Source of the DNA: Rhodothermales bacterium
GTDB taxonomy: Bacteria; Bacteroidota; Rhodothermia; Rhodothermales; Bin80
NCBI GenBank assembly: GCA_958296045.1
Contig: CATQHT010000003.1
Location: 2,057,246 to 2,121,245, forward strand
Length of the DNA: 64,000 nucleotides
Direction: 5' to 3'
Shown here in pieces: positions 9,966-46,711 of the stretch (its first letter is position 1; each line of letters starts with the position of its first letter). The notes beneath the pieces were generated by a model. That model was given only the letters and a program-made list of their open reading frames with translations. It was not told the origin of the DNA and did not search any database. The position numbers and the translations under genes were made by a program.

Positions 9966-10588
9966 ATCGCGGTAGCCCCAGGGTTTCCCCTGGGGCCCCG
10001 CACAGATCCGTGCGTGCGCGGTGACGCACACGGCTCCTCCCGCAGGTCGCGCTGTCGCGCATGACGTTAGGAAGTGGGGATACCCACCTCCAGCCGTAAG
10101 CGGTACACTTGCGCCCCGACTGTGGCTCTGAGTCCACAGCCATTTGGACAGATTCACAAAATCCGACCCAGAGTCCGGCATGAATCCAGCTTTCCGCTTT
10201 CCCCTTGGGTGCGACCCTTGGCTCCACCGGCTCCGCCCCGTGGTCATCCACGCGTTGTTCGCTGGCTTCGTAGCTACTATGGTCACATCTGACTTCTCTC
10301 CACCGTACATCCTCCGATCAGCATTTAGCCTACGCTTTGGCGACCCTCCCCGAAGGGATGGGTAATGGAGAGACCTCCCAGGTCCCGATGCAGTACGTAC
10401 GTGCGTGCCTGGGTTCTTGGACACCGCGGGACCCTCCTCCGCCTCACCATTAACGGCGAAGAAGGTGTTGCCTTCGACCAAGCAGAAAGCCTCGGCATCC
10501 CGGACTATAACATTTTCGGTGCTCATTAGCCCTGCCCACCCGCACCTCTACCGACGCTTCGCTGGCACCCTCGCGGGTACCAACGCAC
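9966..10588 (-). mobile_element. Group II intron remnant with deleted reverse transcriptase
   Basis: Read on the minus strand, 10036-10005 folds as a domain V hairpin starting GAGCCGTGTGCG and closing with CGCACGCACGGATC. It is followed by a domain VI-like GC hairpin and CTACCGCGAT at the 3' end (9966). A GTGCG 5'-end motif lies at 10588-10584. Just inside are the segments MYGGEKSDVTIVATKPANN and, in another frame, AEPVEPRVAPKGKAE, both typical of the first residues of bacterial group II intron maturases/RTs. The rest of the ~400-residue RT is missing, so the intron has lost its ORF by internal deletion. It is antisense to, and immediately upstream of, the cmr operon. The boundaries are my reading of consensus ends. 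Confidence 0.7.
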
Positions 10589-10599
10589 GGCTCGAGGAG

Positions 10600-13185
10600 A
10601 TGCGTGGATGGTTAATCCTTCACATCGGGAGACTTTCACTCCCTGTACTGGCACCAGTTAGCCTGGCGCACCTGCTTCTAGTTTACCTGCATGATCCGAT
10701 AGATAAAGCCTTGGACATCAGGGGGCACGAGCGGCGCGCAGCCCGATACGCGACTGCTGCGCTTGGCCGCTCGGTAAGCCTTAACGAAATGAAAAGAGCT
10801 GCGCGCACGGCAGATTCCAGAGCCGCTGTTGCTGAACGTATTCCGATGCCTACAGCAGGGTTCCGAGGCGAGCGCGCCATTAGCCCGGAAGGGGGTGTAT
10901 TACAGATCAGGCATCCCTTAAGCGGAGACCCTATGGAGCTTCGTTGCCAGCCTTTGAACGAGGAGTACGTAGAACGAACCATCGCCACGATTGTGGACGG
11001 ATTGGGCTCGCCTCGAAAGCGATTCCTGGCACTTTGGCGGCTATTGCCTGATCGCCTTGACTCATGGATCTCACGTCTGCCGGCTGATACGCGCATACCA
11101 GATCACACGGTGATCCATCATACTGACATCACGGCAGCAATTGCGGCAAGCCTTCAGCATAGCACATCAGGCGGCGCGATTCTCTCTTTTGTTTTGGGTC
11201 CGGTTCAGAGTTTTATAGACGCAGCGCGCTCGGTGCGTGACCTGTGGACAGGCAGTGCGATTCTCTCATGGCTGTCCTTCCAGGCAATGCAACCTATATT
11301 GGACGCCTTGGGACCCACGGCATTCATCTATCCGTCGCTCAGAGGTAATCCGCTGCTGGACCTTTGGCTGCGGAATGAAGTGCATCTGAGCGGCATTCCT
11401 CACCCAGAGGCTGCTGTTCGTATGAGTCCGTCACTCCCACACCGATTCGTAGCACTGGTCCCTTGGGGCAATAACGGAAGAATTGCGAGCGAGTTGTCTT
11501 CAAAGTGCAGGTCAGCATTTCGGGCGGCTTGGGAGCGTGTCACGGCGAAGGTACATGGCGAACTTGCTCCGATCCTGAACGGATTAGCAAAGGGATGGAG
11601 CCGGGACTGGGAAGGACAGAATGGTGACTTTTTCGACGTAGTCGTCAGCGTGGTTCCGGCGAACAGGATGGATGACACCAAATTGGCGCACTTGCTGGGC
11701 GGCAAGTCATTTAAGCATGTTTGGAATGATGCAGCGGCAATCCGAGCGCTGGATGCAGCCATGCCAGCCGCCGACAAGCCTCGCTATGCTCAGCGCTCAG
11801 CAGGGCGCTGGCAGGCTCAGCTCGAATACTCGGCGCGTGTAATGGAAGCCAACCGGCAGGTTCGACATGTTCCGTCATCAGGACCAGCGACGGAAGATGC
11901 AGGGGCCGTACCGGCTAAGTGCAGCCTTTTTGGGTCGTGGGAGCAGATGGGACCGGCCAAATGGCGACCGTCGATTGGATTTTGGGAAGCCGCAGCGAAC
12001 GCCTTGAACGTTAAGGGGGTACGGCTGAAATCAGGCGAGCGTTTTTGTGCTATTGCGCTTGCGAAGCGCTTTGCAGGTCCAGCGTTTCTTGCGAGTAAGC
12101 TGGATCTTGCTCCTAGTGAGCTGCGCTTTCCAGATACGGCTACGGTGGCGGCGGCGGAGTGGCTCCAGAGTACAGAAATTGATGTAGAGGCGATTCGCTC
12201 CCGGCACGGATATTGGAGCGGGCAGTGGCTGCATGACCATGACGAGCAAATGCCATCCGAGACACGTGACGAGGTTGTGCACGCGACCACGCGGTGGGGA
12301 AAGGTACCTTCTTACTATGCGGTCCTAAAGATGGACGGCGACGACATTGGAAGCTGGCTCCGCGGAGACCGCTCACCGATGCTCCGAAGCGTGCTGCACC
12401 CTAAGATGGTAGGTTACTTCGAAGCATTGGATTCGAAGCCGGTGTCGGAGGCGCTAAGAGCAAAGCGCCCAGTAGGCCCTGCATTGCATGCATCCATAAG
12501 TGCAGCGCTGGGAAAGTTCGCCTCGCGCGATGCTCCAAAGATTGTTCGGCGCAACCACGGCACGATAATTTACTGTGGTGGCGATGATCTCCTAGCACTA
12601 TTGCCTGCGAAGTGTGCCGTGCGGTGTGCTCAACAGTTGCGTACGGCGTTTCGCGACGGACCGAGTGGTATGGGATCCACGGCTACCATCTCCGCTGGTA
12701 TTGCGTACGTACACTACAAGGAGGATCTCAGACTGGCGCTTCAAGCTGCACGAAACGCCGAGAAATTCGCCAAAGACCAGGGAAAGGATCGGCTGTATCA
12801 GACCTTCATGCGACGTTCGGGTGAGCACACGGGTGGAGCACTGTCATGGCGACTCGTTGACTGGTTCAGTGAGCTGGTTCAGTGTTTTTCCGGCGGTGCG
12901 AGCAGCCGATGGGTTTTCCGCATTGCTGCCCAAGTGCCGATTCTTGCGGAAGCCGATTTGCCCGCACTCGCAATCAGAGCGCAGATCATTCGCATCTGTA
13001 ATCGAATTGAAGACGAGCAGTGGCATGATCTTGCAAAATCAGACACGCCTGGTGAGTTCATAGCCCGCATGTGGGAGCGTTTCCTGGCCGTGCGCGGCGA
13101 TTCTAGTGCAGCGGGGCCGAATTCACTCTATGAATTTATAGGGCTGTGCGGTGGCGCTGCATTTGTCGCTAGGGGACAGGATTGA
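10600..13185 (+). CDS. cmr2: Type III-B CRISPR Cas10 (Cmr2)
   Basis: Large subunit of the Cmr complex, about 861 residues from the ATG at 10600. The open frame extends further left, but only into intron sequence. The N-terminal HD-domain motif YLHDPIDKALDIRGHE (H31-D32) is intact. Two palm domains follow: LKMDGDDIGSW near residue 578, and CGGDDLLALLPA with GGDD near residue 660, the cyclic-oligoadenylate synthase signature. A DNase HD site and an active cyclase site are both present, so target-RNA binding should trigger second-messenger production. First gene of a tightly packed operon; its stop overlaps cmr3. The close intron boundary may have replaced the original promoter. Confidence 0.93.
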   Translation: MRGWLILHIGRLSLPVLAPVSLAHLLLVYLHDPIDKALDIRGHERRAARYATAALGRSVSLNEMKRAARTADSRAAVAERIPMPTAGFRGERAISPEGGVLQIRHPLSGDPMELRCQPLNEEYVERTIATIVDGLGSPRKRFLALWRLLPDRLDSWISRLPADTRIPDHTVIHHTDITAAIAASLQHSTSGGAILSFVLGPVQSFIDAARSVRDLWTGSAILSWLSFQAMQPILDALGPTAFIYPSLRGNPLLDLWLRNEVHLSGIPHPEAAVRMSPSLPHRFVALVPWGNNGRIASELSSKCRSAFRAAWERVTAKVHGELAPILNGLAKGWSRDWEGQNGDFFDVVVSVVPANRMDDTKLAHLLGGKSFKHVWNDAAAIRALDAAMPAADKPRYAQRSAGRWQAQLEYSARVMEANRQVRHVPSSGPATEDAGAVPAKCSLFGSWEQMGPAKWRPSIGFWEAAANALNVKGVRLKSGERFCAIALAKRFAGPAFLASKLDLAPSELRFPDTATVAAAEWLQSTEIDVEAIRSRHGYWSGQWLHDHDEQMPSETRDEVVHATTRWGKVPSYYAVLKMDGDDIGSWLRGDRSPMLRSVLHPKMVGYFEALDSKPVSEALRAKRPVGPALHASISAALGKFASRDAPKIVRRNHGTIIYCGGDDLLALLPAKCAVRCAQQLRTAFRDGPSGMGSTATISAGIAYVHYKEDLRLALQAARNAEKFAKDQGKDRLYQTFMRRSGEHTGGALSWRLVDWFSELVQCFSGGASSRWVFRIAAQVPILAEADLPALAIRAQIIRICNRIEDEQWHDLAKSDTPGEFIARMWERFLAVRGDSSAAGPNSLYEFIGLCGGAAFVARGQD

Positions 13186-14249
13186 CTAAACGCTCCATGA
13201 CCCAATTGCTGCGATTAGACCCTATTGATAGCTTGTTTTTCCGGGGCGGCCGCCCCTTTGGACCTGCGACCCGGGCTGTTTCGGGCCTCCCCAAGCCGCA
13301 AACAGTTGCTGGAGCGCTCCGCACGTCAATGCTGCGAGCGGCTGGCATTGATCTGGCACTGATCGGGTCACGCATCAGGTCTGGGCTGTCGTTTGGAGAA
13401 GCCGCAGAGGCATGTGGTGACGTTGGGGCCGCCATCGGCAGTGTCCGATTCAGAGGGCCGTGGTTGGGGCACGACGGGTCCCTGATGTATCCTGTACCTG
13501 CAACGCTGAGGCGTGAGGAGGAAGGCGGGCCTATTGTTCGGCTTGATCCGTTACGCGACATGCTGCCGGGGTGGCAACCCAGGCAATCGGGCATGAAACC
13601 TCTCTGGTCAAAGTACCGGCAACGACTAAAGCGCATTCCAGGCTGTATCACGGAATGCGGCATGGTTCGGTACCGTGCAGGCAGCACGCCACGCAGCGAT
13701 GACATCGTGCCAGCTGATAAGCTGTATGGATTTGATGATCGGACTGGGATAGGTCTGGATTCTGACCGTGGCGTGGCAGCGGACGGCATGATCTACGCGG
13801 TACGTCACCTGGTGCTATGTCCCGGGGTGAACTTGTTTGTTGAGGTAAGCGGGTCGGCGGATGCGCTCCTGCTGTTTCCAGAGGAAGGTACGCTGTTACC
13901 TCTGGGTGGTGAAGGGCGGCGGGTGGTGGCGTACCCGGTGATGCGTAAATCCAATGCTGATAACCTGACTCCTCAAGTAGGAATGGATGGCCAGCTGATT
14001 ATATTTACGACACCGGCATTGTTGAATGGATGGTGTCCAGACAGCCTGAAGCCGATCGCTGCAGCCGTGCCAGGGTACGAAGCCGTTTCAGGGTGGGATC
14101 TTGCACGCGGAGGACCAAAACCCAACCGATTTGCAGTTTGCGCGGGTACGGTTTTCTTCGTGGAATCAGTTCCGGGGACCTCGGCGCTGTCCCGCGATTC
14201 CGAGCTGGGCTGGGGGAGCTATCTGGCGGGTTACTGGAGATATACTTGA
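13182..14249 (+). CDS. cmr3: Type III-B CRISPR RAMP protein Cmr3
   Basis: A 355-residue RAMP (Cas5-like) subunit. The N-terminal LLRLDPIDSLFFRGGRPF and KPQTVAGALRTSML are typical of Cmr3, which binds the 5' repeat-derived handle of the crRNA and contacts Cmr2. The start is taken as the TTG at 13182, which overlaps the cmr2 stop as TTGA and follows a purine-rich stretch. The ATG at 13197 is an alternative and would remove five residues. C-terminal glycine-rich segments (LGWGSYLAGYW) match the family end. Confidence 0.88.
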   Translation: MTKRSMTQLLRLDPIDSLFFRGGRPFGPATRAVSGLPKPQTVAGALRTSMLRAAGIDLALIGSRIRSGLSFGEAAEACGDVGAAIGSVRFRGPWLGHDGSLMYPVPATLRREEEGGPIVRLDPLRDMLPGWQPRQSGMKPLWSKYRQRLKRIPGCITECGMVRYRAGSTPRSDDIVPADKLYGFDDRTGIGLDSDRGVAADGMIYAVRHLVLCPGVNLFVEVSGSADALLLFPEEGTLLPLGGEGRRVVAYPVMRKSNADNLTPQVGMDGQLIIFTTPALLNGWCPDSLKPIAAAVPGYEAVSGWDLARGGPKPNRFAVCAGTVFFVESVPGTSALSRDSELGWGSYLAGYWRYT

Positions 14250-14288: not shown

Positions 14289-15188
14289 ATGGCTAAGAAC
14301 GCGTTACTCTATATTCACTGCCTCACCGGCCTTCACCCGGGCAGTGGCACCGCGCTGGGTGTTGTTGATCTCCCAGTTAAGCGGGAGCGCCACACGGAGT
14401 GGCCGACAGTTCCTGGCTCGTCACTCAAGGGTGTGCTCAGAGCTGCCTGCGCGTCTGAACGTGGAAGGCACGATGAAAGGGTCCTGGCAGCCTTTGGTCC
14501 AGAACCTGGCGCCGCAAGTGATCATGCTGGAGCGCTGGCGCTAGCTGATGCGCGCCTGCTGGCATTCCCTGTGCGCTCGCTGCGGGGGATTTTTGCTTGG
14601 ACGACCTGCCCAGCGGCACTGGAGCGTCTTAACAGAGATCTGGGACTAATTGGAGTGACGGATTTTCCTGAGATTCCGACCGTAGTCTCCAACAGGTTGG
14701 TCTGCGCAGCGAACAGCCCGTTGCTGACTAATGAACATGCGGTGTTAGAAGAGTTCGAATTCGCCCGCGAGAAAGACCGCGGTGCGGGAGCAAGGGTGGC
14801 TGCGTGGCTTGCCTCTCGCGTGACTACGGACCCGCACATGCAGGAGCGCTTTCAGTCTCACTTGGCTATACTAAGCGATGATGATTTTACTCACTTCGCC
14901 CGCCATACTACGGACATTGTTGCCCGCATCGGTCTTGACTATGAGCGCAAGACCGTGCGCAAGGGGGCACTCTTTTATGAAGAGTATTTGCCAGCGGAGA
15001 CGCTGTTCTACAGTCTGGTTATGGGGGTGCGAAGTCGTCGAAGCAGTGTCCGCATGAGTGCAGCGGGTATCCTCGGATGGTTTGGTGACGCCATGCCGAG
15101 ACATGTGCAAATTGGCGGTGGCGAAAGTATCGGTAAAGGGCTTTGCGCACTACAACTTGTAAGCGATAACAGGGGGGTAGTGTCATGA
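14289..15188 (+). CDS. cmr4: Type III-B CRISPR backbone RAMP Cmr4
   Basis: A 299-residue Cas7-like backbone subunit that polymerises along the crRNA and cuts the bound target RNA at 6-nt intervals. LTGLHPGSGTALGVVDLPVK contains the loop Asp (in VVDLP) known as the cleavage residue of this family. WPTVPGSSLKGVLRA and the late QIGGGESIGKGLC are the RAMP glycine-rich motifs. Its stop overlaps the cmr5 start (ATGA at 15185). The gap from cmr3 is only about 40 bases. Confidence 0.92.
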   Translation: MAKNALLYIHCLTGLHPGSGTALGVVDLPVKRERHTEWPTVPGSSLKGVLRAACASERGRHDERVLAAFGPEPGAASDHAGALALADARLLAFPVRSLRGIFAWTTCPAALERLNRDLGLIGVTDFPEIPTVVSNRLVCAANSPLLTNEHAVLEEFEFAREKDRGAGARVAAWLASRVTTDPHMQERFQSHLAILSDDDFTHFARHTTDIVARIGLDYERKTVRKGALFYEEYLPAETLFYSLVMGVRSRRSSVRMSAAGILGWFGDAMPRHVQIGGGESIGKGLCALQLVSDNRGVVS

Positions 15189-15592
15189 CCCAGACCTTAA
15201 GCCAAAGGCGGGCGCGCCATGCGTGGCAGGCCGTACAGAAGGCCAGTGCGGCGCTGAACGAGTCAGAATGGGAGGATTACCAGCGTCAGTCAAAGCGATT
15301 GTCGGTGAGAATCATGACGTCTGGACTAGGACATGCCATTGCCTACATGAATGCGAAATCTGGAATGGTAAATGACCGTCTTGGAGCGGGCATGGCGGAC
15401 TGGTTACTGGTAAAACGGCCAACCACGAAGCGTACTCGCCGGGATAAGGTTTGTGGCAAGATTTTGTGTGATGAGATCTGCCACCGCGACGCGAATTTCT
15501 TGCGGTTCGCCACCAATGAAGCCTTGCAGTACCTCCAGTGGCTCGTTCGTTTTGCGGAGGCAGAAATACGGGACAAAAACAAGAGTCAGTAG
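15185..15592 (+). CDS. cmr5: Type III-B CRISPR small subunit Cmr5
   Basis: A 135-residue, mostly helical small subunit. The opening QTLSQRRARHAWQAVQ and the short GLGHAIAYMNAKSG are typical of Cmr5, which forms the minor filament stabilising the target-bound complex. Translationally coupled to cmr4 by an ATGA overlap, and followed five bases later by the fused Cmr6-Cmr1 gene. Confidence 0.88.
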   Translation: MTQTLSQRRARHAWQAVQKASAALNESEWEDYQRQSKRLSVRIMTSGLGHAIAYMNAKSGMVNDRLGAGMADWLLVKRPTTKRTRRDKVCGKILCDEICHRDANFLRFATNEALQYLQWLVRFAEAEIRDKNKSQ

Positions 15593-15597
15593 CTGCG

Positions 15598-17844
15598 ATG
15601 GATCGCACAGGGTCAGCGTCAAACCGTATAGGTGTGCCTAGACTGGTTCTTCCGCATCAGACGATCGAGGCGGTCGGAGCTGTGGAGATTGCAGATCGCC
15701 ATGCCGGGCTGCAGCTTGATAAGTTGTCTTGGGGAGCTGATCAACAAGAGCAAGGTGCCGCGCTGGACCATGTAACCAGTTGCTGCGGTGACGTTACACT
15801 ACTATCGGCGCTGCGAGCAAGGCGAGATGCCACGCTTCGCGACTTGGGTGCGAGGCGCATGCAGGGCAAAGCGCAGGGCCCACTCACATTACACTTGGCG
15901 CGTTCAGGTGCTTTGGAGAATGCCGGTATTGCGCTTCATCCGCTCTACGGATTTGTTTGGCTCCCTGGCTCTGGACTCAAGGGAATGACGCGAGCCTGGG
16001 CAGAGACCATTTGGGCACCAGCCCAGCCTGATGTACGCGATGCATGGGACAAGATCTATGCAGTGTTTGGAACGGGTCCAAGGGCTGGGAAAAAGGACGC
16101 ATGGATACCTAAGGATATCGGGCAACCGGTGGAAGGCGTGGGGCACGTGGTTTTTCACGATGCCTGGCCGGTTCAATGGCCGAAGCTCGCACGAGACATT
16201 GTAAACAACCACCATAGCAAGTACTACGGAGGCGAATGTGGCCCAGGCGACTGGGAAGCTCCGAATCTCGTGAGCTTTCTGGTGGTGGTTGCAGGCACAG
16301 AGTTCGACTTTGCGGTCTCCAATCGTGGGACTGGCGATCCGGGATTAGCTGATTTGGCTATACAGTGGATGTCAGCAGCGCTGTTGCATACAGGTACAGG
16401 GGCGAAGACCGCAGCTGGTTACGGGCGTATAAGAATTGTTGACCCGGCGCCGGCGAGCCCACCCGTGCTCCGTCGCCTAGCTCGATCCGAGCATGTGCTT
16501 GAGCTGGTTTCTCCTGCCTTTCTGGCAGGCGCGGAGCAAGGACAGGCAGACTGTGACCTGCGCCCGGCGACACTGCGCGGCCTGCTTCGATGGTGGTGGC
16601 GCACTATGCATGCAGCGCACCTTTCGCCTGAAGACCTCCTTACGCTGGAATCGTTCCTCTGGGGCGATACGGACATGGGCAGCCGCATCTCAATTGCTCT
16701 CACGAAAAAAAGCTCGAGCGGTGTCGCAATGCGGTACGATAAGCAAGAGATTGCAAAGCAATCTCTTGCTCAGTCTACAAAGAATCGTCCGAGGCAAGTC
16801 ACGCAGGGGCTCTATTATACCTCCTACGGAATGGGCGAGCGTAATAGTCGAAGTTGGAGGTATTACCGGTGCCCGGGAGACAGCTGGACTCTTACGATAA
16901 CGGCGGTCGAGGCAAGGAAGACAGCGCTAGGCGGCAAGACTGTAACGGCTAAGATGCTGCTCAGGCAGGCGCAAGCTGCACTGTGGTTGCTCACAATGTA
17001 CGGTGGTGCCGGCTCCAAGGCTCGCAAGGGCTTTGGCTCATTTGCCGACGTAGAGGTTACGGGTATCGCGGCTATAGCAGACTGCATCCGTATCGGAAAA
17101 GAGTTTCGCGAGTCCTTCGGCCCTTCGCGGAAAGGGCGGAGCCAGACACCGGCACTGGAGAATCGCATTGGACCGGTTGCGGTACCTACCGACTGGACAG
17201 CTGACACCTTTTGGCATGCCCTTGGTTGTATCGGTGCGGTGTACCAGAGGTACGTAAAGTCGCTTCGAAGCCGGAAGGAACGTATGGCGGTGGGACTGCC
17301 GCGCACGTACGGTGAAGGTAAGCAGCGGCAGCCCATCATTAGTCCTGACGGATGGAAGCGTCACGCATCTCCTGCTCACTGGAGTCTGGCGCGAAACAAT
17401 GGGAAGCTTGTTGTTCGATTGATGGCATTTCCCGCCGAGGGTTTGCCAAACAAGGAAACAAGCACGCTTGTCATGCAGGAGTTAGTAAAGCAAGCAGATA
17501 AGGGCCTGCAGGCCGAGTCTAAACGCAAGCCCAAACGCCCGCTGGCACATCAACCTCCTCAGGAAAGGCAAACACGGCTGGTATCCGGTACTAAGGTAGA
17601 TGCAGTCCTGCTGAAGGAACAGACGAGACGGGGTGGTTGGAAAGCCAGGACGGATTCGAGGCTTACCGGACCCATCGTTGATTCTCCCCGAGTGCCCGGA
17701 GGGATGAAGGCCGGCGATAGGATTGAGCTCTACATTCTCAGCACGAATCCAAGGGCTCCCAGTTTTCAGTATAAGCGTACTTCGAAGAAGCGTCCTAATG
17801 GACCGAGGTCCAAGAGGGGCAAATCCAACAACAGGCGGAGATGA
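15598..17844 (+). CDS. Fused Cmr6-Cmr1 RAMP protein
   Basis: A 748-residue protein with two RAMP units in one chain. Residues about 60-275 match Cmr6: FVWLPGSGLKGMTRAWAE near 126, HVVFHDAWP, and HTGTGAKTAAGYGRIRI near 265. Residues about 295-540 match Cmr1: VLELVSPAFLAGAEQG, LRPATLRGLLRWWWRTM, and YGGAGSKARKGFGSF near 468. The last ~90 residues resemble a basic nucleic-acid-binding tail (KEQTRRGGWKARTDSRLTGP, then GDRIELYIL) ending in a Lys/Arg-rich stretch. In most Cmr loci these are two genes; here no separate cmr1 or cmr6 exists. Both cap the 3' end of the crRNA in the complex, so fusion would fix their 1:1 contact. The start is the ATG at 15598, since the upstream frame only reads through cmr5. 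Confidence 0.87.
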   Translation: MDRTGSASNRIGVPRLVLPHQTIEAVGAVEIADRHAGLQLDKLSWGADQQEQGAALDHVTSCCGDVTLLSALRARRDATLRDLGARRMQGKAQGPLTLHLARSGALENAGIALHPLYGFVWLPGSGLKGMTRAWAETIWAPAQPDVRDAWDKIYAVFGTGPRAGKKDAWIPKDIGQPVEGVGHVVFHDAWPVQWPKLARDIVNNHHSKYYGGECGPGDWEAPNLVSFLVVVAGTEFDFAVSNRGTGDPGLADLAIQWMSAALLHTGTGAKTAAGYGRIRIVDPAPASPPVLRRLARSEHVLELVSPAFLAGAEQGQADCDLRPATLRGLLRWWWRTMHAAHLSPEDLLTLESFLWGDTDMGSRISIALTKKSSSGVAMRYDKQEIAKQSLAQSTKNRPRQVTQGLYYTSYGMGERNSRSWRYYRCPGDSWTLTITAVEARKTALGGKTVTAKMLLRQAQAALWLLTMYGGAGSKARKGFGSFADVEVTGIAAIADCIRIGKEFRESFGPSRKGRSQTPALENRIGPVAVPTDWTADTFWHALGCIGAVYQRYVKSLRSRKERMAVGLPRTYGEGKQRQPIISPDGWKRHASPAHWSLARNNGKLVVRLMAFPAEGLPNKETSTLVMQELVKQADKGLQAESKRKPKRPLAHQPPQERQTRLVSGTKVDAVLLKEQTRRGGWKARTDSRLTGPIVDSPRVPGGMKAGDRIELYILSTNPRAPSFQYKRTSKKRPNGPRSKRGKSNNRRR

Positions 17845-19073
17845 TGATGAAAACAGGTAAAGTTCTGGTGCTCACCGTAGGTACCGGTGACATTGATAGG
17901 CTAAAAGAAACGCTGCTGACGCCACTGGCCAAGTCCATCGGCGACGGCGAGTGGGACTGTGCAGTACTGCTGCCTTCGATGATTACCGCAGAATACGCTG
18001 AAGCGCTTAAAGCACAGATTCGAGGCCTGCCCGTTCAGACCAAGCCCCTACCGCAGCCCGGACTGGAGGACGATGCAGATGCGTGTTTTGGACACTTTGA
18101 TAAGGAATTGGCCAAACTGCTTGATGAAGGATACGGCCCGTCAGCAATTACAGTGGATTTTACTCGTGGTACGAAGGCTATGAGTGCGGCGTTGGTGCTT
18201 GCCGCGGCGGGGCGGGGAATTCCTCACCTTCGGTATGTGACAGGAGTGAGGGATCGTCGAGGCATGGTTAAGCCGGGCTTAGAGACGATCTCGGGACTGC
18301 TTGCAACGCGCGCGATCGCTCGAAGGCAACTCAGCTTGGCGGGTAACTTATACGAGAAAGGCGACTATGCGGCAGTGTTGGAGGTCTTGAACGGTGCGCT
18401 TGACGAATGGCCGGCTGAATACAGAGAAGACGTGCAGACTCGTCGCCATTGCGCCCGGTTTCGCGGTGCTTGGGATCGACTCAACTACTGCGAAGCTGCG
18501 AAGCTACTCGAGGAAATTCAGTTACCCGAATCACTGTCTGAAGCTGTAGAGTGGGTCAAAAAGCTGTCCCGAAAACCAAAAAGGAGCAACCACGAGGCGA
18601 TGTCTCGTTGGCTAACATTGGTCGCTTGGGATGTGCTCAACAACGGTCGCCAGCGCCTGCGTGAGCACCACTACGAAGACGCATTAATTAGGGGTTACCG
18701 TGTGCTTGAGCTCATCGGGCAGCTTAGCCTGTTTGCATACGGCTTGGACAGTGCTTGCCTGGATGAGACTGATGAGGGAGTCCAAAGACTCAAAAAGAAG
18801 CTTCGGAAAGGGGGCAGTAGGGAGCTTGGAATAGACGGAAAAGGCCGCCTAAACGCTGGTAGGGAACAAGTGGCAAGATTGCTTAAGCTAAAGGGAGATC
18901 CAGTGGGGAAGAAACTGCTTGCGCTTGCGGAGGGGAGTAAGGTGGTCAGAGGCCGGAACATTAGCATACTGAATCATGGGTTTGAAGCGCAGGCACCCTC
19001 TGAGGATGCTCTGGTAACGTTTTTTAACGACCTTGAGTCGCTTCTTGGGACGTATGAACCCAGGCTAAGTTAG
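17841..19073 (+). CDS. CARF-HEPN CRISPR ancillary protein (Cas02710 family)
   Basis: A 410-residue protein of the TIGR02710/Cas02710 type. The N-terminal CARF Rossmann domain has VLVLTVGTGDID and VDFTRGTKAMSAALVLAA, the loops that bind cyclic oligoadenylate. The C-terminal helical HEPN domain ends with RGRNISILNHGF, an R-x6-H ribonuclease motif near residue 372. Known relatives are RNases switched on by the messenger made by Cas10. It overlaps the preceding RAMP gene at ATGA, so it is produced with the complex. Three consecutive ATG codons occur at the start; the first is used here. Confidence 0.85.
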   Translation: MMMKTGKVLVLTVGTGDIDRLKETLLTPLAKSIGDGEWDCAVLLPSMITAEYAEALKAQIRGLPVQTKPLPQPGLEDDADACFGHFDKELAKLLDEGYGPSAITVDFTRGTKAMSAALVLAAAGRGIPHLRYVTGVRDRRGMVKPGLETISGLLATRAIARRQLSLAGNLYEKGDYAAVLEVLNGALDEWPAEYREDVQTRRHCARFRGAWDRLNYCEAAKLLEEIQLPESLSEAVEWVKKLSRKPKRSNHEAMSRWLTLVAWDVLNNGRQRLREHHYEDALIRGYRVLELIGQLSLFAYGLDSACLDETDEGVQRLKKKLRKGGSRELGIDGKGRLNAGREQVARLLKLKGDPVGKKLLALAEGSKVVRGRNISILNHGFEAQAPSEDALVTFFNDLESLLGTYEPRLS

Positions 19074-21078: not shown

Positions 21079-21640
21079 GGGCTGCCGCCCATCCGTATGT
21101 GTCACCGCTGTAGGGGCCAGCCCCCATGCCGGTCGATCACCACGTCAATCTTGTACATCAGCCGCATGGTTGCGGAGACTGCAGCGTGCATATGCCGGAA
21201 GTGGAATACGTCATCTACCGAAAGTATGCGCCCCTTCCGTTCCGCCATCCACTTTTTCAGCGGCTGATAACCACATTGGACGAAGCTGTACACCTCCTCG
21301 TTCACCCCAGCGAAGTACTGCCGCTCGTTAAGCCAGACCCTGCCGTCCTTGAACCGGGAGCGTACACTCTCAACTTTGTTAGTGCCTGGCACAGGAAATC
21401 CAGGCAAGTCGCTGCCGTGCTGGCGCATCAGATGAAGCTGGGCCAAGCGGTCACCCAGGTCTACCAGATGCCAGAATAAATCCGGCTGATCCGTTACAGG
21501 AATGTGCGGAAAGTCTACCTTCAACTGGGGTAAGTACCGAGATCGGTATTGGGGGCTGTGCAGGCAAGCATAGATGTAGTACAACACGTCTTCGGGCCCA
21601 AACGTGCCAGCGCCGTCGCCCCTTCCGTCTGGAAGCCACT
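21067..21640. repeat. 3'-end repeat shared by the two RM genes, copy 1
   Basis: About 570 bases, starting with GTGACCGTTGATCGGGCTGC some 35 bases outside the stop codon and running through the last ~180 codons of the first restriction-modification gene. They are almost identical to 24563-25120. Similarity falls sharply further inside the genes, which suggests recombination or gene conversion of the C-terminal end. Confidence 0.8.
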
Positions 21641-24290
21641 CGATCTCCAGTTTATTGGCAACAAAGGCTGCAAATTTCAGATTCACGTTGGCAGTCTTGC
21701 CCATGGAGCCGCTGTAGATGTACAACGGGAACACGTACGCTGACCCGATACGGTCCATCAGCAGACGGTGCGTACAGACATGGGGCGTAAGGAATACATG
21801 GTTGAAAGCACTCTTTGCCACCTGCCGCACCGTGACCAGACCCAGGTTGGGCCCGTGGATCATATGCTGCATCACCTTGAATACTGGCTGGCATATGAAA
21901 CTGCGTGAGCTATGAGTGTAGTAAGTGTATCGCACGTCATATGGACGATAAAGAACGGGCTGTACAAATCGCGGTGATATGCTCGTTCCCTTGACGGCGT
22001 TCTGGGCACGTCGCACCTGCCAGTCGCGGCTGTCCTTGCCCGTATTGAATGTGATTCGTGCCTCTTCAGGCGTCATACTCACAAATTTTCGCACGAATGC
22101 TATCAAAGCCTTCCGGGAGTCGTGGATCGTTACATGATCTCTGCATGTCTGCATCGCGGCCGTGCTTTCAAGCATGATATCGCGCTTGAGGCTATGCCAC
22201 GCATGGTATGAGCTCCTCTGCGCCTCGCTTTGCGGCAGGAAGAAATACCAGGGCGACGATGGGGCTACCTCAGTCCATTTGGTGCTGGTCCAGTCTTCGC
22301 GGTTAAGCCACTGGTATTTCAAGTCGCGATCACCCCACAGATCCGCGTGAAACACACGAGCATGCTCATGGCCCACATCCTTGCGCTTTACGAAAAGCCC
22401 GATGGCCACTCCCTGGCGGATGTCAAACACATTTTGATCTTTGATTCCGGCGGGTGCATCAACAGAAAGAAAGGCATCGCCATGCAGGTCCAAAACGTAG
22501 ATCTCGCTGAATGAGTGCAGCAATGACTCCCTCATGCCGCGGAACGTGATGTTCTTCAGGTATGCATGATTCGTCACGAATGCCAGAATCCCCTCACCCG
22601 TTCGATCTATCCTGTGCTGGGCAAAGCGAATGAACTTTACGTAGTCATCCTGTAACGAGCCGGATTGTCGCTCCCGGATCGGTGATCCATCTGCGGAGTA
22701 GTAACCGACCGAGTGATTCACCCCGCTTCCACCTTTGCCCTTAAGTAAATCACTGATCCACCGCCCCTTATTCAACGAATTCCTGGCATACGGCGGGTTG
22801 CCCATAATCACCATCAAGGGCGTATCACGCTTTACACCATCGGCTCCTTTCGCCTCAGCCACAACGGGGTCAGGCTCGAAAAGTATTGAGCCGGTTTTGG
22901 ATGGTTCCGTGAGGGCATTAGTCAGATAGACCTGAAAACGTTGGCTGGCATCGAGCTTAACTCCGTGGCTTCCGCTCTGTAACTCCAGGGCCAGTCTCAG
23001 ATGACATATAGCATGTGGAGCCACCAATAGCTCGAAGCCGTACAACTTGGAAAAGAGGTGCTCATGCACATAGCCTGGCCAGATGCCTGCCATACCTCGT
23101 GCCACTACATGGTCACGTATATGGGCAATCACGTGTCGCAAGAATGTGCCCGTACCCGTAGCAGGATCGAGTATCAGCACCCGGTGTACACGCTGCTCTT
23201 GACGCTTCCCGTTGGCCTCCACCGTATGAGAAACCATCTGCTTGTCTGCCAATCCGTCGGACAAATCGAAGTGCCCCTTAAGTAGCGCATCAACACTAGC
23301 CACTATATACTTGACTACCGGCGTCGGAGTATAGAATACACCGCGCTGGAGCTGCAATGTCTCGTCATACTGTCTCAGAAATTTCTCGTAAAAGTGCACG
23401 ACGGGATCTTCATCCTTGCCGTTGCCACGAAACTCAGCCAGTATAGCGCCAAACCAGCGTCCTGCGAGCAATGCTGCCAGCTCGTCCACAATCCATGTCA
23501 GTCGAGGGTCTGCCCAATTGCCCGCGATATAATCAAAAAAATGATTGAGCAGCCGCGTGGTAAGAACTCTGAGCGCATCGTCCTTTGAGAACGTTGACTC
23601 CCCATTTACGAACGTTAGACAGCGAGCAGCAAACAGGCCATAGGCGGCCGACTGGGCGTAGATATCGGCGAAAGCACCTTCGGTTAGGTCTGGTATCAGC
23701 TCCCTCTTGAGCTTCTCGTACATCGCCCTGAACCGGCCCTCCTCCTGCTCCTCGATCAAGATACTGGCCATCACATCGCGAAACAGCTGCGCTTTTCCCG
23801 CCATATGTATGGCCAATTGGGCAGCCGTATGTATCTCGAGCGTTGATGGTTTCAAGAACTCGCCGAAGAATGTCTCGGGTAAAATCTCACTTGTGGCTGC
23901 CGTGATCCTTCCCGTCCTCGACACCGCACCTATCTGGACTGATGATCTCCGCTCACCCCCCACGTACCACCGGAATTCCAGATAGTCCGTAAGCAACAGA
24001 TTGTTGAATGCCGCTCGGTAGCGCTTCAGCTGGCTAGAGCGCTCCACCACATCGAGGTCCGTTCCGATATCCTTGCACTCAACATAGCCGATGGGTACGC
24101 CATCGCGCTGAATAGTGAAATCTGGCGCGTTGTGTTGTACCTGCTTTGCCTCATTGAGCACCATTCTGCTCTTACCACTCAATTCCTGCAGCAGCTGCTG
24201 AAGGGCAGACCGATATGTGTGCTCCCTGGCCTGGCCCGTAGCCAGCTTTCCCTGAAGGTCCTTACGATACGCACGCAACAAATCAGTCAT
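21102..24290 (-). CDS. Single-chain restriction-modification enzyme A
   Basis: A 1062-residue enzyme with nuclease and N6-adenine methylase in one chain (type IIG / type ISP-like, here without a helicase). The N-terminal PD-(D/E)xK site is NAPDFTIQRDGVPIGYVECK (D57, E71, K73). The methylase motif I is LDPATGTGTF (D375) and motif IV is GNPPY (498-501). The region after ~600 is the specificity and C-terminal part (WYFFLPQSEAQR, YRPYDVRYTYYT). It should modify and cut at one recognition site. It lies head-to-tail with a paralogue at 24599, with the C-terminal ~180 residues almost shared and the middle diverged, which fits two different specificities. Confidence 0.85.
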   Translation of the reverse strand: MTDLLRAYRKDLQGKLATGQAREHTYRSALQQLLQELSGKSRMVLNEAKQVQHNAPDFTIQRDGVPIGYVECKDIGTDLDVVERSSQLKRYRAAFNNLLLTDYLEFRWYVGGERRSSVQIGAVSRTGRITAATSEILPETFFGEFLKPSTLEIHTAAQLAIHMAGKAQLFRDVMASILIEEQEEGRFRAMYEKLKRELIPDLTEGAFADIYAQSAAYGLFAARCLTFVNGESTFSKDDALRVLTTRLLNHFFDYIAGNWADPRLTWIVDELAALLAGRWFGAILAEFRGNGKDEDPVVHFYEKFLRQYDETLQLQRGVFYTPTPVVKYIVASVDALLKGHFDLSDGLADKQMVSHTVEANGKRQEQRVHRVLILDPATGTGTFLRHVIAHIRDHVVARGMAGIWPGYVHEHLFSKLYGFELLVAPHAICHLRLALELQSGSHGVKLDASQRFQVYLTNALTEPSKTGSILFEPDPVVAEAKGADGVKRDTPLMVIMGNPPYARNSLNKGRWISDLLKGKGGSGVNHSVGYYSADGSPIRERQSGSLQDDYVKFIRFAQHRIDRTGEGILAFVTNHAYLKNITFRGMRESLLHSFSEIYVLDLHGDAFLSVDAPAGIKDQNVFDIRQGVAIGLFVKRKDVGHEHARVFHADLWGDRDLKYQWLNREDWTSTKWTEVAPSSPWYFFLPQSEAQRSSYHAWHSLKRDIMLESTAAMQTCRDHVTIHDSRKALIAFVRKFVSMTPEEARITFNTGKDSRDWQVRRAQNAVKGTSISPRFVQPVLYRPYDVRYTYYTHSSRSFICQPVFKVMQHMIHGPNLGLVTVRQVAKSAFNHVFLTPHVCTHRLLMDRIGSAYVFPLYIYSGSMGKTANVNLKFAAFVANKLEIEWLPDGRGDGAGTFGPEDVLYYIYACLHSPQYRSRYLPQLKVDFPHIPVTDQPDLFWHLVDLGDRLAQLHLMRQHGSDLPGFPVPGTNKVESVRSRFKDGRVWLNERQYFAGVNEEVYSFVQCGYQPLKKWMAERKGRILSVDDVFHFRHMHAAVSATMRLMYKIDVVIDRHGGWPLQR

Positions 24291-24598: not shown

Positions 24599-25120
24599 TC
24601 ACCGCTGTAGAGGCCAGCCCCCATGCTTGTCGATCACCACGTCAATCTTGTCCATCAGCCGCATGGTTGCGGAGGCTGCAGCGTGCATATACCGGAAGTG
24701 GAATACGTCATCTACCGAAAGTACGCGCCCCTTTCGTTCCGCCAGCCACTTTTTCAGCGGCTGATAACCGCATTGGACGAAGCTGTACACCTCCTCGTTC
24801 ACCCCAGCGAAGTACTGCCGCCCGTTAAGCCAAATCCTGCCGTCCTTGAACCGGGAGCGTACACTCTCAACTTTGTTGGTGCCGGGCACTGGAAATCCAG
24901 GCAAGTCGCTGCCGTACCGGCGCATCAGATGAAGCTGGGCCAAGCGGTCACCCAGGTCTACCAGATGCCAGAACAGCGACACCTGATCCGTCACAGGGAC
25001 GCGTGGAAAATCCACCTTGAGCTCTGGCAGGTAGCGAGATCGGTATTGGGGACTGTGCAAGCAGGCATAGATGTAGTACAACACGTCTTCGGGCCCGAAT
25101 GTGCTTTCACCGTCACCTTG
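24563..25120. repeat. 3'-end repeat shared by the two RM genes, copy 2
   Basis: Direct counterpart of 21067-21640, covering the 3' end and downstream flank of the second restriction-modification gene. Confidence 0.8.
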
Positions 25121-27772
25121 GCCATCCTTGACCCACGTCAGATTCAAACGATCAGAAATGACTTCAACGAATGACTGACGTACGTTAGACTGTCTTCCGA
25201 GCCGACCGAGGTACGAGTACAGAGGCAGAATATCCGCAGCCGTCGATATCGCTTTAATCACATGCTTGTTAGCGATAGTGTCTGTTATCCAAACATGATT
25301 ATATGTATTGCTACCTACAGTCCGAACGACCAGCAGCCCCAGATTGGCACCATGCACCATATGTTGCATTACTCGATAAACCGGCCTGCTTAAGAAACCC
25401 TTCGAATGCTCTGTATAGTAGGTGAAGCGCACATCATACGCCTTCATCAATATGGCTTGCACATTAGCTGTTGTGGGCCCAGATTCACGCACAGTGTCTT
25501 CAGCCAACTGCATCGCCCAATAACTACTATCCGCAGGCACATGGTGCTTGACCCGAACCCTCTCGTGCGGAAGATTGACCAAGTCCTGCACAAAATCCCA
25601 CAATTCCTCCTTAGTGAATCTAGTGGTGATGCTGTCTCTCCCGGTCTGAATCGCCGCCGTACGCTTGGAAAATATGCCGCCCACCACGCTGAAGTAGCTT
25701 CTGTACTCGTCGGCGAACGTACTGTGGCGAGGTACGAACATGTAATAGGGAGCCTCTGGTACGACCTCCTGCCAGGATACCGACGCGACATCATTCTCTG
25801 CCAGCCACAAATACTTGGAATTGCGGTCACCCCACAGATCCGCGTGAAACACACGAGCAAGACCATCATTTCCATGCTTACACTTGACGAATAGCGCAAT
25901 TGCAACCCCCTTCTGAATGTCAAACACGTTCTCGTCCTTCGCGCCAAGCGGCGCATTGATGGACAAGAAGGCGTCACCATGAAGGTCCAGCACGTACAGG
26001 CTCGTGAACGACTCCAGCAATGACTTGCGCATTGCTCTAAACGTTACGTTGTCCAGATAGGCATGATTCGTGATGATCCCCAGAATGCCTTCGCCATTCG
26101 TATCAATCCGAAACTGTGCAAAGCGAATGAACTTGACATAATCGTCAGCGATGGATCCGCGTTGCTTTTCGCCAATGTCTACTCCGTCGACTGCGTAGTA
26201 ACTGGGCGCCAACGCTCCGCCTTCGTGGACACCCTTGAGCAGGTTCGTGATCCATGCCGACGTGTTAACGGAGTTCCTGCGATACGGTGGATTGCCAAGG
26301 ATGACCATGATCGGCGTGTCTGCCCTTATAATGCTGGCATCTATGGCCTCAGCAGCAATCGGGTCAGCGTAAAGTCCACCACGGTTGTGTACCGGCCTAT
26401 TCAGCGTGTTGGTGAGATGAACACGGAAACGTTCCGTTCTTGAGAGGCTCACCGGCGGACGCAATCGCTTGAGTTCAAGCGCCAACTTCAGGTGACAGAT
26501 GGTATAAGGGGCAATCAGTAGCTCAAACCCGATCAGCCTGTTGAGCAAATGGCGCCGAACAAACCTTGGCCATATACCCGCCATGCCCTGCTGAACGACA
26601 CGGTGATGTATGTGATGGACCACCTCCTTCAGAAACGTTCCCGTGCCCGCAGCCGGATCCAGGATCGTTACCTTGCTACTCCGCTCTGTACATCTTCTCG
26701 ACGAGGCGAATTCAACTTCATCCTGATTGGCTAGACCATCCGCAAGACCGAAGGAGGTTTCAAGCAGTCTGTCGATACTCCGCACAATAAACTGGACCAC
26801 CGGCCTGGGGGTATAGTACACACCACGCTTCACACTTAGGTCAGGATTATAGGCGCGCAAGAAATCCTCATAGAAGTGCACCACGGGGTCTTCAGCAACA
26901 CTGTCCGCACTAAATTCTTCTAGAACATGTCTCATGTAGTCACCACTGACCAGATAGGCTATTTCGTCTACAATCCACTCAAGCCTCGGATGCGCATACG
27001 CCCCCGCGATCCCGCCAAACATGTGATTGAGAAGCGGAGTGGTCACAGCCATGATCGCTTGTTGCCTTGTAAAGCGACCACCATTCGCATCAAAGGTGAC
27101 GCACCTGGCAGCGAACAAACCATAGGCTGCAGACTGCGCGTACATGTCGCTGAAGGCCTCCTCGGTAAGGTCTGGAATCAGCACCTCCCGTAGCCTCATA
27201 AATAGTACCTTCAGGGCCCCGTCATCTCCCTCGTCTGCCAGTATGCTCGCTACCGTTGTCTTGAACAGCTGGGCTTTGCCCGCCATGTACTGCGCGAGTT
27301 GGGCTGCCGTCCGTATCTCCAATGTAACGGGATCAAAGAAGCGCTCAAAGAACTTCGCTGGATGCAGCTCGCTGGGGTACGCCCGGATCTGTCCCGCCGG
27401 CGTCACTACGCCCACAACAGTCACCGCCCTTCTCTTACCCCTCACATACCAGCGAAACTCCAGGTAATTCGTTAGCAACAGATTGCTGAAGGCCTGCCGG
27501 TAGCGTCTTAGCTGCTCAGACTGCTCCGCGCCATCCAGATCATTGCCAACGTCCTTGCACTCAACGTAGCCAATGGGGACCTCGTCTCGCTGGATAATAA
27601 AGTCCGGTGCATTATGCTCCACCTGCTGCGCCTCGTTGAGCGCCGTCACACCCACGCCGCCCAGTTCATGCAACAGCCGCTGCAGTGCAGACCGGTACGC
27701 GTGCTCTGTTGCCTGGCCCGTAGCGAGAAGGCTCTGAAGCCCATGGCGGTACGTGCGAAAAGGATCAGCCAT
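24599..27772 (-). CDS. Single-chain restriction-modification enzyme B
   Basis: A 1057-residue paralogue of enzyme A with the same plan. The nuclease site is APDFIIQRDEVPIGYVECKD (D57, E71, K73), motif I is LDPAAGTGTF, and motif IV is LGNPPYRRNS. The segment at about residues 660-890, where target recognition is expected, is strongly diverged from enzyme A. The last ~180 residues from FGPEDVLYYIYACLHSPQYR onward are nearly the same. Two intact copies argue that both specificities are, or were recently, maintained. Its promoter would lie to the right of 27772. Confidence 0.85.
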   Translation of the reverse strand: MADPFRTYRHGLQSLLATGQATEHAYRSALQRLLHELGGVGVTALNEAQQVEHNAPDFIIQRDEVPIGYVECKDVGNDLDGAEQSEQLRRYRQAFSNLLLTNYLEFRWYVRGKRRAVTVVGVVTPAGQIRAYPSELHPAKFFERFFDPVTLEIRTAAQLAQYMAGKAQLFKTTVASILADEGDDGALKVLFMRLREVLIPDLTEEAFSDMYAQSAAYGLFAARCVTFDANGGRFTRQQAIMAVTTPLLNHMFGGIAGAYAHPRLEWIVDEIAYLVSGDYMRHVLEEFSADSVAEDPVVHFYEDFLRAYNPDLSVKRGVYYTPRPVVQFIVRSIDRLLETSFGLADGLANQDEVEFASSRRCTERSSKVTILDPAAGTGTFLKEVVHHIHHRVVQQGMAGIWPRFVRRHLLNRLIGFELLIAPYTICHLKLALELKRLRPPVSLSRTERFRVHLTNTLNRPVHNRGGLYADPIAAEAIDASIIRADTPIMVILGNPPYRRNSVNTSAWITNLLKGVHEGGALAPSYYAVDGVDIGEKQRGSIADDYVKFIRFAQFRIDTNGEGILGIITNHAYLDNVTFRAMRKSLLESFTSLYVLDLHGDAFLSINAPLGAKDENVFDIQKGVAIALFVKCKHGNDGLARVFHADLWGDRNSKYLWLAENDVASVSWQEVVPEAPYYMFVPRHSTFADEYRSYFSVVGGIFSKRTAAIQTGRDSITTRFTKEELWDFVQDLVNLPHERVRVKHHVPADSSYWAMQLAEDTVRESGPTTANVQAILMKAYDVRFTYYTEHSKGFLSRPVYRVMQHMVHGANLGLLVVRTVGSNTYNHVWITDTIANKHVIKAISTAADILPLYSYLGRLGRQSNVRQSFVEVISDRLNLTWVKDGQGDGESTFGPEDVLYYIYACLHSPQYRSRYLPELKVDFPRVPVTDQVSLFWHLVDLGDRLAQLHLMRRYGSDLPGFPVPGTNKVESVRSRFKDGRIWLNGRQYFAGVNEEVYSFVQCGYQPLKKWLAERKGRVLSVDDVFHFRYMHAAASATMRLMDKIDVVIDKHGGWPLQR

Positions 27773-42211: not shown

Positions 42212-43126
42212 GTTTCAATCCCCTAATGAGCGGGGCAGGCATTGCGGGCAAATCACGGTTCGCCGTGAGCGAGGAGACTATCCTGGAGATGTTGTTGCAA
42301 TCCCCTAATGAGCGGGGCAGGCGTTGCGGGTCCAGAATGAATGCAGCGTTAACCAAAGCGCGGAACGATGTTTCAATCCCCTAATGAGCGGGGCAGGCGT
42401 TGCGGGGAGAGAGAGCTCCTCCTTGATATAATAAGGACCGAGCAGATGTTTCAATCCCCTAATAAGCGGGGCAGGCGTTGCGGGCACCGATGTCCCTGGG
42501 GAGCAGATACTTGCTCTACAGGACTGGTGCAAGGGTTTCAATCCCCTAATGAGCGGGGCAGGCGTTGCGGGCCAGAGCTTCTTGTCCTTGCATTCCGACA
42601 TCTTCGCGAAGTTTCAATCCCCTAATGAGCGGGGCAGGCGTTGCGGGTTCGCTGCTATGCACCGTGTGTCGGTGGAAGACGGGATCGAGGAAGTTTCAAT
42701 CCCCTAATGAGCGGGGCAGGCGTTGCGGGTTGAAAAAGGAGGTCATCATGACTTTGATTTACAGTGTGAAGAGGGGTTTCAATCCCCTAATGAGCGGGGC
42801 AGGCGTTGCGGGCGAATCCACGTCATGGCTGTCCTCAAGGAGGAGATGGACAAGTTTCAATCCCCTAATGAGCGGGGCAGGCGTTGCGGGCGAATCCACG
42901 TCATGGCTGTCCTCAAGGAGGAGATGGACAAGTTTCAATCCCCTAATGAGCGGGGCAGGCGTTGCGGGTTGTAATGCGGATGGCACAGTGCCTGACTGCT
43001 AAACGAAGTTTCAATCCCCTAATGAGCGGGGCAGGCGTTGCGGGATTGTGAAGGACGTTTGCGGTATCAGGGTGAGATGCTCACTTTGAGTTTCAATCCC
43101 CTAATGAGCGGGGCAGGCGTTGCGGG
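42212..43126 (-). CRISPR. CRISPR array, 12 repeats, 11 spacers
   Basis: Repeat of 37 bases, starting GTTTCAATCCCCTAATGAGC on the plus strand. Repeats start at 42212, 42294, 42370, 42448, 42535, 42611, 42693, 42776, 42854, 42932, 43008 and 43090. Spacers are 39-50 bases. The repeats at 42212, 42294 and 42448 carry single changes, marking the left as the old end. The leader and cas2 are on the right, so transcription runs leftward and the transcribed repeat ends ATTGAAAC, the usual 5' crRNA tag of type I/III systems. The spacers at 42813-42853 and 42891-42931 are identical. The repeat type suits the Cmr complex encoded 23 kb away; no cas6 is present for processing. Confidence 0.98.
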
Positions 43127-43973: not shown

Positions 43974-44543
43974 CTATGAAGCAAAGATCGGGACGTACTG
44001 CTTACGACCACGTACATGCCGCGCTAACCTGTCGACCTGGCGCCGCATAAGCTCCTCTGGAGATATGCGCTCGCGAAGCCCAGGCAACGGCCGGTCCATA
44101 AACGCTTCCCACAAACGGAAGCAAGTGCGCGGTCCATCGCGCGTCAAACGAACACCACCCCCGTCTGGATCGACCCTGAAATCACTCGGCGTCAGCTCAC
44201 GCCGGTTGCAGACCCTTAGCACAAAACGATCCACCACCGGATGCCGTAACTCCTCAGTAAGGTCAAGCGCCAGACTGGGACGGCCAGCACGCACCATGTG
44301 CAGAAATCCAATGTACGGATCAAAGCCGCGTGCCTCAAGGAGGCTGGCAAGAGCATTGACCATTATGACATACCCGAAAGAAAACACCGCGTTTGCAGGA
44401 TCTGGTGGCGGCCTGCGAGCACGGCCAGAAAATGGGATGCCCCCGTCAAATGCCGCCGCTAGCGCCGCAAAGTACGAACTGGCCGCATAACCTTCAAAGC
44501 CGCGAAGGGTATCCTTGTCTGCCGCTACCTCCACAGCCCTAAG
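43974..44543 (-). pseudogene. cas1: cas1, C-terminal part
   Basis: About 186 residues of Cas1 from just before TLRGFEGYAASSYFAAL (catalytic Glu) through GYVIMVNALASLLEARGFDP, then YIGFLHMVRAGRPSLALDLT (catalytic His and Asp/Glu) to the natural end. The residues of the active site are all present. The 5' side is interrupted by the ISAzo13 element. AGCCCTAAG (44535-44543) is one copy of the 9-base direct repeat. Removing the element and one repeat copy restores the frame into the fragment at 46.7 kb. Confidence 0.92.
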
Positions 44544-44881
44544 GGATCATCCATAAATAACTTGCCCATCTGGACAGGTTGTCTCAGATAAGCGGGATGT
44601 GGTCCAGTCCTTCGCTGCCGCATTACAGAGCATTCCGGGTCCTGTTAGCCTAGTGTTATGGAACACTGTTGATCAAGCCAAGACTGACTGAGTACTTTTT
44701 CGGCCCGCTCATCAGCTGTTTTCCGCGCTCAGTGGGTAGCTGGATCCGTTTGCCCTTAATCCTTGTTCATCATGGATGCCCGTTCCACGAGTCAGATGCA
44801 GTTCGCTGCATCCATGAGCTATTGTCTGCGTTATGACGATATTACGATATGTCTTAATACGATACATGTCATAAGGAGGCC

Positions 44882-46605: not shown

Positions 46606-46711
46606 CTACCCAAACATCATCTGCCAGATCGCGATTTACCTCCCCTAGTCTGCCAAAGTGGACTCCTGGAGAGGTTGACTTCATTCAGGATGGGAAAGTT
46701 ATTTATGGACG

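What the first reader, a model, noticed from the sequence alone, without database searches (positions are those of the whole stretch)
15598..17844. Cmr6 and Cmr1 fused in one chain, with an extra basic C-terminal module
Both RAMP signatures occur in order in one uninterrupted gene (Cmr6 GLKGMTRAWAE and AKTAAGYGRI; Cmr1 LRPATLRGLLRWWW and GSKARKGFGSF), and no separate cmr1 or cmr6 is in the operon. In the usual complex the two subunits are adjacent at the crRNA 3' end. A covalent link plus a Lys/Arg-rich tail could change crRNA 3'-end handling and stoichiometry.
Basis: partly seen in the sequence, partly recalled or inferred. Interest (0 to 1): 0.62.

Follow-up and report, generated by a model that had tools for sequence, protein, structure and literature searches.

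The report
Cmr6–Cmr1 fusion with S1 domain
In this type III-B CRISPR system, the two proteins that cap the far end of the guide RNA are one protein with an extra RNA-binding-type (S1) domain; the fusion is real and occurs in many bacteria, but fusing these two subunits has already been reported, so it is an unusual variant, not a new system.

Summary
Window 15598-17844 encodes one uninterrupted 748-residue protein (82.1 kDa). It consists of a complete Cmr6 (residues ~19-280), a ~13-residue linker, a complete two-RRM Cmr1 (~294-638) and a C-terminal extension. The operon is cas10-cmr3-cmr4-cmr5-[cmr6-cmr1]-CARF/HEPN. No separate cmr1 or cmr6 passes the family cut-off elsewhere in the genome. 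An artefact is excluded: a second full-length fusion (44% identical) lies in the same genome, and 32 more full-length orthologs come from at least eight phyla, in the same operon position.

The 'extra basic module' is better described. Residues 661-725 fold as a five-stranded OB domain whose best structural matches are S1 domains. It is conserved in all 34 fusions. The Lys/Arg-rich part is a short disordered tail that many orthologs lack.

Most likely function: a pre-joined 1:1 cap for the crRNA 3' end, with an S1 domain adding RNA contact there. Altered stoichiometry is not needed, because characterised Thermus Cmr complexes already hold one Cmr1 and one Cmr6.

Cmr1/Cmr6 fusions are published (Microcystis Cmr1-6, shown to assemble and protect against T4) and occur in other cyanobacteria without the S1 domain. 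I rate this a new variant of a known kind.

The parts
15598..17844 (+). cmr6-cmr1-S1 fusion gene, 748 aa
15652..16437 (+). Cmr6 part (residues 19-280)
   Evidence: TIGR01898 E 1.8e-27; model aligns to A. fulgidus Cmr6 3x1l_H, Z 15.7, rmsd 3.4 over 209 residues
16438..16476 (+). linker between Cmr6 and Cmr1 (residues 281-293), variable in sequence and length among orthologs
16477..17511 (+). complete two-RRM Cmr1 part (residues 294-638)
   Evidence: TIGR01894 E 8.1e-8; model aligns to A. fulgidus Cmr1 9l7c_A, Z 24.2, rmsd 3.5 over 285 residues
17578..17772 (+). S1-type OB domain (residues 661-725)
   Evidence: AF2 pLDDT 81-91 over most of it, five strands; Foldseek top hit ribosomal protein S1 E 2e-3; best VIA hits nearly all S1 domains, Z 7.4-8.4; in all 34 full-length fusions
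17773..17841 (+). disordered Lys/Arg-rich tail (residues 726-748), not conserved
   Evidence: 52% K+R, net +12; absent or short in many orthologs
10600..13185 (+). cas10/cmr2; palm GGDD at ~12577; native start displaced by an antisense group II intron remnant, true start uncertain (ATG 10600 or GTG 10405)
13182..14249 (+). cmr3
14289..15188 (+). cmr4
15185..15592 (+). cmr5
17841..19073 (+). CARF-HEPN effector (TIGR02710, Csx1/Csm6-like), HEPN motif RNISILNH intact
42212..43126 (-). CRISPR array, 12 repeats, same repeat as the array beside the second fusion operon

Best explanation
The gene encodes the whole crRNA 3'-end cap of a type III-B (Cmr) effector as one chain. Cmr6 closes the Cmr4 filament, the linked Cmr1 follows as the next Cas7-like units, and the S1-type OB domain with its basic tail extends RNA contact at the place where the crRNA 3' end and the target-RNA seed region are exposed. 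The link enforces one Cmr1 per Cmr6 and lets the cap load in one step. Target recognition would then switch on Cas10, whose product activates the CARF-HEPN RNase encoded by the next gene. Shown by sequence and structure prediction: one chain, complete Cmr6 and Cmr1 folds, an S1-type fold, conservation and operon. Taken from studied Cmr complexes: the position at the crRNA 3' end, the 1:1 ratio and the need for Cmr1/Cmr6 in target binding. Inferred: one-step loading and RNA binding by the S1 domain.
For: Domains and folds. Model residues 19-647 also align across several Cas7 units of single-chain Cas7-11/gRAMP (Z ~10-11), as expected if the two parts pack as consecutive Cas7 units. 34 full-length orthologs (33-47% identity to the window protein), all matching both Cmr6 and Cmr1 models, all with the S1 domain. 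Conserved operon with no separate cmr1/cmr6. Invariant tryptophans W332-W334, matching the W38/W39 RNA-contact region of P. furiosus Cmr1 (PMC5965380). Cmr1/Cmr6 sit at the crRNA 3' end, one copy each, and are needed for target binding (PMC8376896). A Cmr1-6 fusion of Microcystis assembled with Cas10, Cmr3, Cmr4 and Cmr5 in E. coli and gave about 10-fold T4 protection (PMC11855584).
Against: No biochemistry on this clade. Sequence support for S1 homology is weak (Pfam hits sub-threshold and scattered), and OB folds do not always bind RNA. The cyanobacterial fusions do without the S1 domain, so it is dispensable in principle. This particular operon may be decaying: the cas10 5' end is displaced by an intron remnant and the nearby cas1 is interrupted.
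Confidence: 0.72

Rival explanations
1. The single frame is an artefact of sequencing or assembly that joins two genes.
For: None found.
Against: Second full-length fusion in the same genome and 32 further full-length orthologs with no stops inside, from independent assemblies in many phyla.
Confidence: 0.01
2. The protein is made as one chain but cut, or restarted internally, so that separate Cmr6 and Cmr1 enter the complex.
For: The linker is variable and probably flexible.
Against: No conserved cleavage motif or start codon seen in the linker alignment. The Microcystis fusion, tagged at its C-terminus, co-purified as one of five bands identified by mass spectrometry (PMC11855584).
Confidence: 0.06
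3. The window operon is a decaying second copy and the other operon does the work.
For: Antisense group II intron remnant abutting the first conserved cas10 codons; cas1 split by a transposase insertion; same repeat at both loci, so the second complex could use these crRNAs.
Against: All effector genes stay open with Cas10 GGDD and the HEPN motif intact; cas10 has alternative in-frame starts.
Confidence: 0.3
4. The fusion arose twice: once in cyanobacteria (without S1) and once in this clade (with S1).
For: The two sets form separate, well-supported groups in the Cmr6 tree, with stand-alone Cmr6 proteins nearer to this clade.
Against: The AU test does not reject one origin (p 0.43); long branches.
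Confidence: 0.5

Closest known systems
Cmr1-6 fusion of Microcystis aeruginosa (PMC11855584) and related cyanobacterial fusions (Nostoc, Synechocystis pSYSA, Picosynechococcus, Leptolyngbya plasmids)
   Same: Cmr6 and Cmr1 in one chain after cmr4 and a small-subunit-sized gene, no separate cmr1 or cmr6 annotated in the loci read
   Different: 628-668 aa, no S1 domain, low identity (28% over 264 aa), other neighbouring effectors; common origin unresolved
Canonical type III-B Cmr complex (A. fulgidus, P. furiosus, T. thermophilus)
   Same: all six subunit folds present; Cmr6 and Cmr1 adjacent at the crRNA 3' end
   Different: two separate subunits, no S1 domain; cmr1 lies elsewhere in the operon (e.g. 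first gene in Thermomicrobium)
Type III-Dv and Cas7-11 (III-E, III-I)
   Same: Cas7-like subunits fused through short linkers (~20 residues in III-Dv, PMC11026444)
   Different: here only the two end-cap Cas7-like proteins are joined; cas10, cmr3, cmr4 and cmr5 stay separate
S1 RNA-binding domains (ribosomal protein S1, NusA, Tex, RNase R)
   Same: five-stranded OB fold, Z 7.4-8.4
   Different: no Pfam model found for the window domain; appended to a Cas protein

Membership tests
Type III-B (Cmr) effector | Cas10/Cmr2, Cmr3, Cmr4, Cmr5 in one operon | tested here: met
Type III-B (Cmr) effector | Cmr6 and Cmr1 domains present | tested here: met
Type III-B (Cmr) effector | assembles on crRNA and cleaves target RNA at 6-nt spacing | not testable with these tools
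   biochemistry needed
Cmr1/Cmr6 fusion proteins (Cmr1-6) | both domains in one uninterrupted chain, no separate genes | tested here: met
Cmr1/Cmr6 fusion proteins (Cmr1-6) | common descent with the cyanobacterial fusions | tested here: inconclusive
   separate groups in the tree but one origin not rejected, p-AU 0.43
S1 domain | OB fold of S1 type | tested here: met
   predicted fold; Foldseek and VIA matches
S1 domain | sequence match to Pfam S1 | tested here: inconclusive
   only sub-threshold hits in a few members
S1 domain | RNA binding | not testable with these tools
   needs a binding assay
Cas7-11 / gRAMP (III-E, III-I) | Cas7 units and Cas11 in one effector chain, no separate Cmr subunits | tested here: not met
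   Cas10, Cmr3, Cmr4 and Cmr5 are separate genes; no gRAMP model hit for the window protein

The most novel reading that the evidence does not exclude
The S1 domain of the fused cap holds the repeat-derived 3' tail of the crRNA, or captures nascent or ribosome-associated transcripts, so that this clade of III-B systems sets crRNA length or finds targets in a way that canonical Cmr complexes do not.
Probability: 0.15. Interest if true: 0.55.

Novelty: new variant of a known kind. Interest (0 to 1): 0.33.

Why it matters
Cmr1 and Cmr6 frame the 3' seed of the guide, and how the crRNA 3' end is trimmed and capped in type III systems is still open. A natural single-chain cap with its own S1 domain, found in two diverged operons of one genome and in many phyla, is a ready test object. 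It also shows that fusion of Cas7-like subunits, best known from III-D, III-E and III-I, occurs at the 3'-end cap of III-B complexes. NCBIfam has no model for the fusion as a whole and Pfam and PADLOC showed only its parts, so such loci can look as if they lack cmr1, as happened with PADLOC in the Microcystis study (PMC11855584).

Tried and rejected
Sequencing artefact: rejected (paralog and 32 further orthologs). Separate cmr1/cmr6 elsewhere in the genome: none over the cut-off. Profile search of the C-terminal domain against PDB sequences gave only chance hits (CD4, E above 0.1). Pfam on the C-terminal domain: only weak, scattered hits, some S1/OB. Phrase searches for 'Cmr6-Cmr1 fusion' found nothing; the precedent came from reading PMC11855584 in full text. 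The 2025 classification paper shows no occurrence of 'cmr' or 'fusion' in its main text; its supplements were not readable. Behler 2018 on the Synechocystis III-Bv system is not held, so I could not check whether it names the fusion. One stand-alone Cmr6 (L097) fell inside the fusion clade in the first tree, on a branch of 7.4 changes per column; it was left out (with two other rows) as a likely long-branch artefact, and the fusion set then formed one side of a branch.

Full report
OBSERVATION. The frame 15598-17844 (+) translates without a stop into 748 residues, predicted 82.1 kDa. NCBIfam finds Cmr6 at 108-278 (E 1.8e-27) and Cmr1 at 302-483 (E 8.1e-8), both over the curated cut-offs. Pfam sees two RAMP stretches. 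The neighbours are cas10, cmr3, cmr4, cmr5 and a TIGR02710 CARF-HEPN protein.

ARTEFACT EXCLUDED. A second full-length fusion, 44% identical, lies about 355 kb away on the same contig of the same genome, with cmr4 and cmr5 before it and the CARF-HEPN gene after it. Cmr6 and Cmr1 models pass their cut-offs nowhere else in this genome. Among relatives, ten further genomes carry full-length fusions, whereas others of the same order (G017, G018, G041, G062) have separate genes. A scan of GTDB genomes gave 32 related loci. In all I aligned 34 full-length fusions. The named ones come from Pseudomonadota, Planctomycetota, Acidobacteriota, Binatota, Latescibacterota, Nitrospinota, Omnitrophota, Hydrogenedentota and Sericytochromatia; they are metagenome-assembled, so single phylum assignments may be wrong. 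Every member matches both models. In a sample of 395 genomes of the window's phylum, 6 of 27 Cmr6 hits over the cut-off lie in frames above 740 aa and the rest in frames of 238-518 aa, so the fusion is a minority form. Of 22 fusion-bearing genomes, 5 also have another, separate Cmr1 elsewhere.

OPERON. In the fetched loci that extend far enough, the order is cas10-cmr3-cmr4-cmr5-fusion, often followed by the CARF-HEPN gene and cas1, with no stand-alone cmr1 or cmr6. Thermomicrobium has the same downstream CARF gene but a separate cmr1 as the first gene and a normal cmr6, which suggests (inference) that cmr1 moved behind cmr6 and was joined to it. The fusion clade is one group in the Cmr6 tree: 100/99 support for the 34 fusions plus one very long-branched sequence, and one side of a branch once that sequence is left out (SH-aLRT 78).

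ANATOMY. AlphaFold2 with the 34-sequence alignment gave pLDDT 78.1 and pTM 0.78. Residues 19-280 align to Cmr6 (3x1l_H, Z 15.7) and 294-638 to the whole two-RRM Cmr1 (9l7c_A, Z 24.2; 4l6u_A, Z 22.0). So both subunits are complete, joined by about 13 residues; the linker is variable among orthologs. Single-chain Cas7-11 structures align over residues 19-647 (Z ~10-11), consistent with the two parts packing as consecutive Cas7 units. The remaining 661-725 forms five strands. Predicted alone, its best Foldseek hits are ribosomal protein S1 and other S1 domains (top E 2e-3, none below 1e-3), and nearly all of the 50 best VIA matches are S1 domains (NusA, Tex, Spt6, S1, eIF2-alpha, RNase R; Z 7.4-8.4). 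A profile of this domain hits every full-length fusion, plus one fusion broken into two frames, and no other open frame in the loci held then, including stand-alone Cmr1 and Cmr6. The strongly basic part (726-748, 52% K+R) is disordered and short or missing in many orthologs.

MECHANISM. In Thermus, Cmr1 and Cmr6 cap the end of the filament that holds the crRNA 3' end, each in one copy in all complex sizes, and they are needed for target binding at the 3' seed (PMC8376896). P. furiosus work places the crRNA 3' end between Cmr1 and Cmr6, with W38/W39 in the RNA groove of Cmr1 (PMC5965380); the matching W332-W334 are invariant here. A model from Bacteroides has Cmr1/Cmr6 capping after trimming (PMC11346440). 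The simplest reading is a one-piece cap with an added RNA-binding surface. The 1:1 ratio is the usual one, so no new stoichiometry is implied. RNA binding by the S1 domain is inferred.

KNOWN OR NEW. Microcystis aeruginosa FACHB-524 carries a Cmr1-6 fusion; its complex was expressed and purified in E. coli, its bands identified by mass spectrometry, and it gave about 10-fold protection against T4 (PMC11855584). I did not fetch that strain's own protein. Related cyanobacterial plasmid proteins of 628-668 aa, including one in a CRISPR locus of Synechocystis pSYSA, have the same order Cmr6 then Cmr1 and no S1 domain. They form their own group, but one common origin is not rejected (p-AU 0.43). 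The fusion as such is therefore already reported; the S1-bearing clade and its spread are what this analysis adds. I found no description of it in the papers that could be searched, and subscription papers were mostly out of reach.

STATE OF THIS COPY. An antisense group II intron remnant abuts the first conserved Cas10 residues (LLLVYLHDP, codons from 10672), so the native cas10 start appears lost although the frame stays open with other starts. The cas1 gene near the CRISPR array is split by a transposase insertion. Palm GGDD and the HEPN motif are intact. The array at 42212-43126 has the same repeat as the array beside the second operon. Whether this copy still works is open.

Noticed in passing
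window 10412-10672: Antisense group II intron remnant (RF02005, 177 bits) inserted at the 5' end of cas10; the conserved Cas10 sequence starts right at the putative intron boundary (GTGCG at ~10671 on the minus strand).
   Followed up: partly
window 43974-47053: cas1 is split: C-terminal part 44106-44543 and N-terminal part 46778-47053 (minus strand), with a transposase-like gene pair (44882-46605, plus strand) between them.
   Followed up: partly
window 42212-43126: CRISPR array of 12 repeats with one repeat-spacer unit duplicated exactly (42776-42931); the same repeat occurs at the second operon and in a third array on contig C2.
   Followed up: partly
G000:C3:1717581-1719797 (L002) versus window: The window fusion groups with alphaproteobacterial fusions, the second copy with those of its own family: two III-B systems of different descent share one repeat sequence.
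   Followed up: partly
L071 11777-14467 (-), genome G002: cmr5 runs in frame without a stop into the fusion (897-aa open frame): a possible Cmr5-Cmr6-Cmr1 triple chain, though a GTG near the junction could serve as a start.
   Followed up: partly
window 21102-24290 and 24599-27772: Two tandem, related ~1060-aa restriction-methylase-like genes on the minus strand; related pieces also lie downstream of the second cmr operon (L066).
   Followed up: no
PDB 9z7q chain I: A solved Cmr1-MntA chain exists, apparently another case of Cmr1 joined to a further domain.
   Followed up: no
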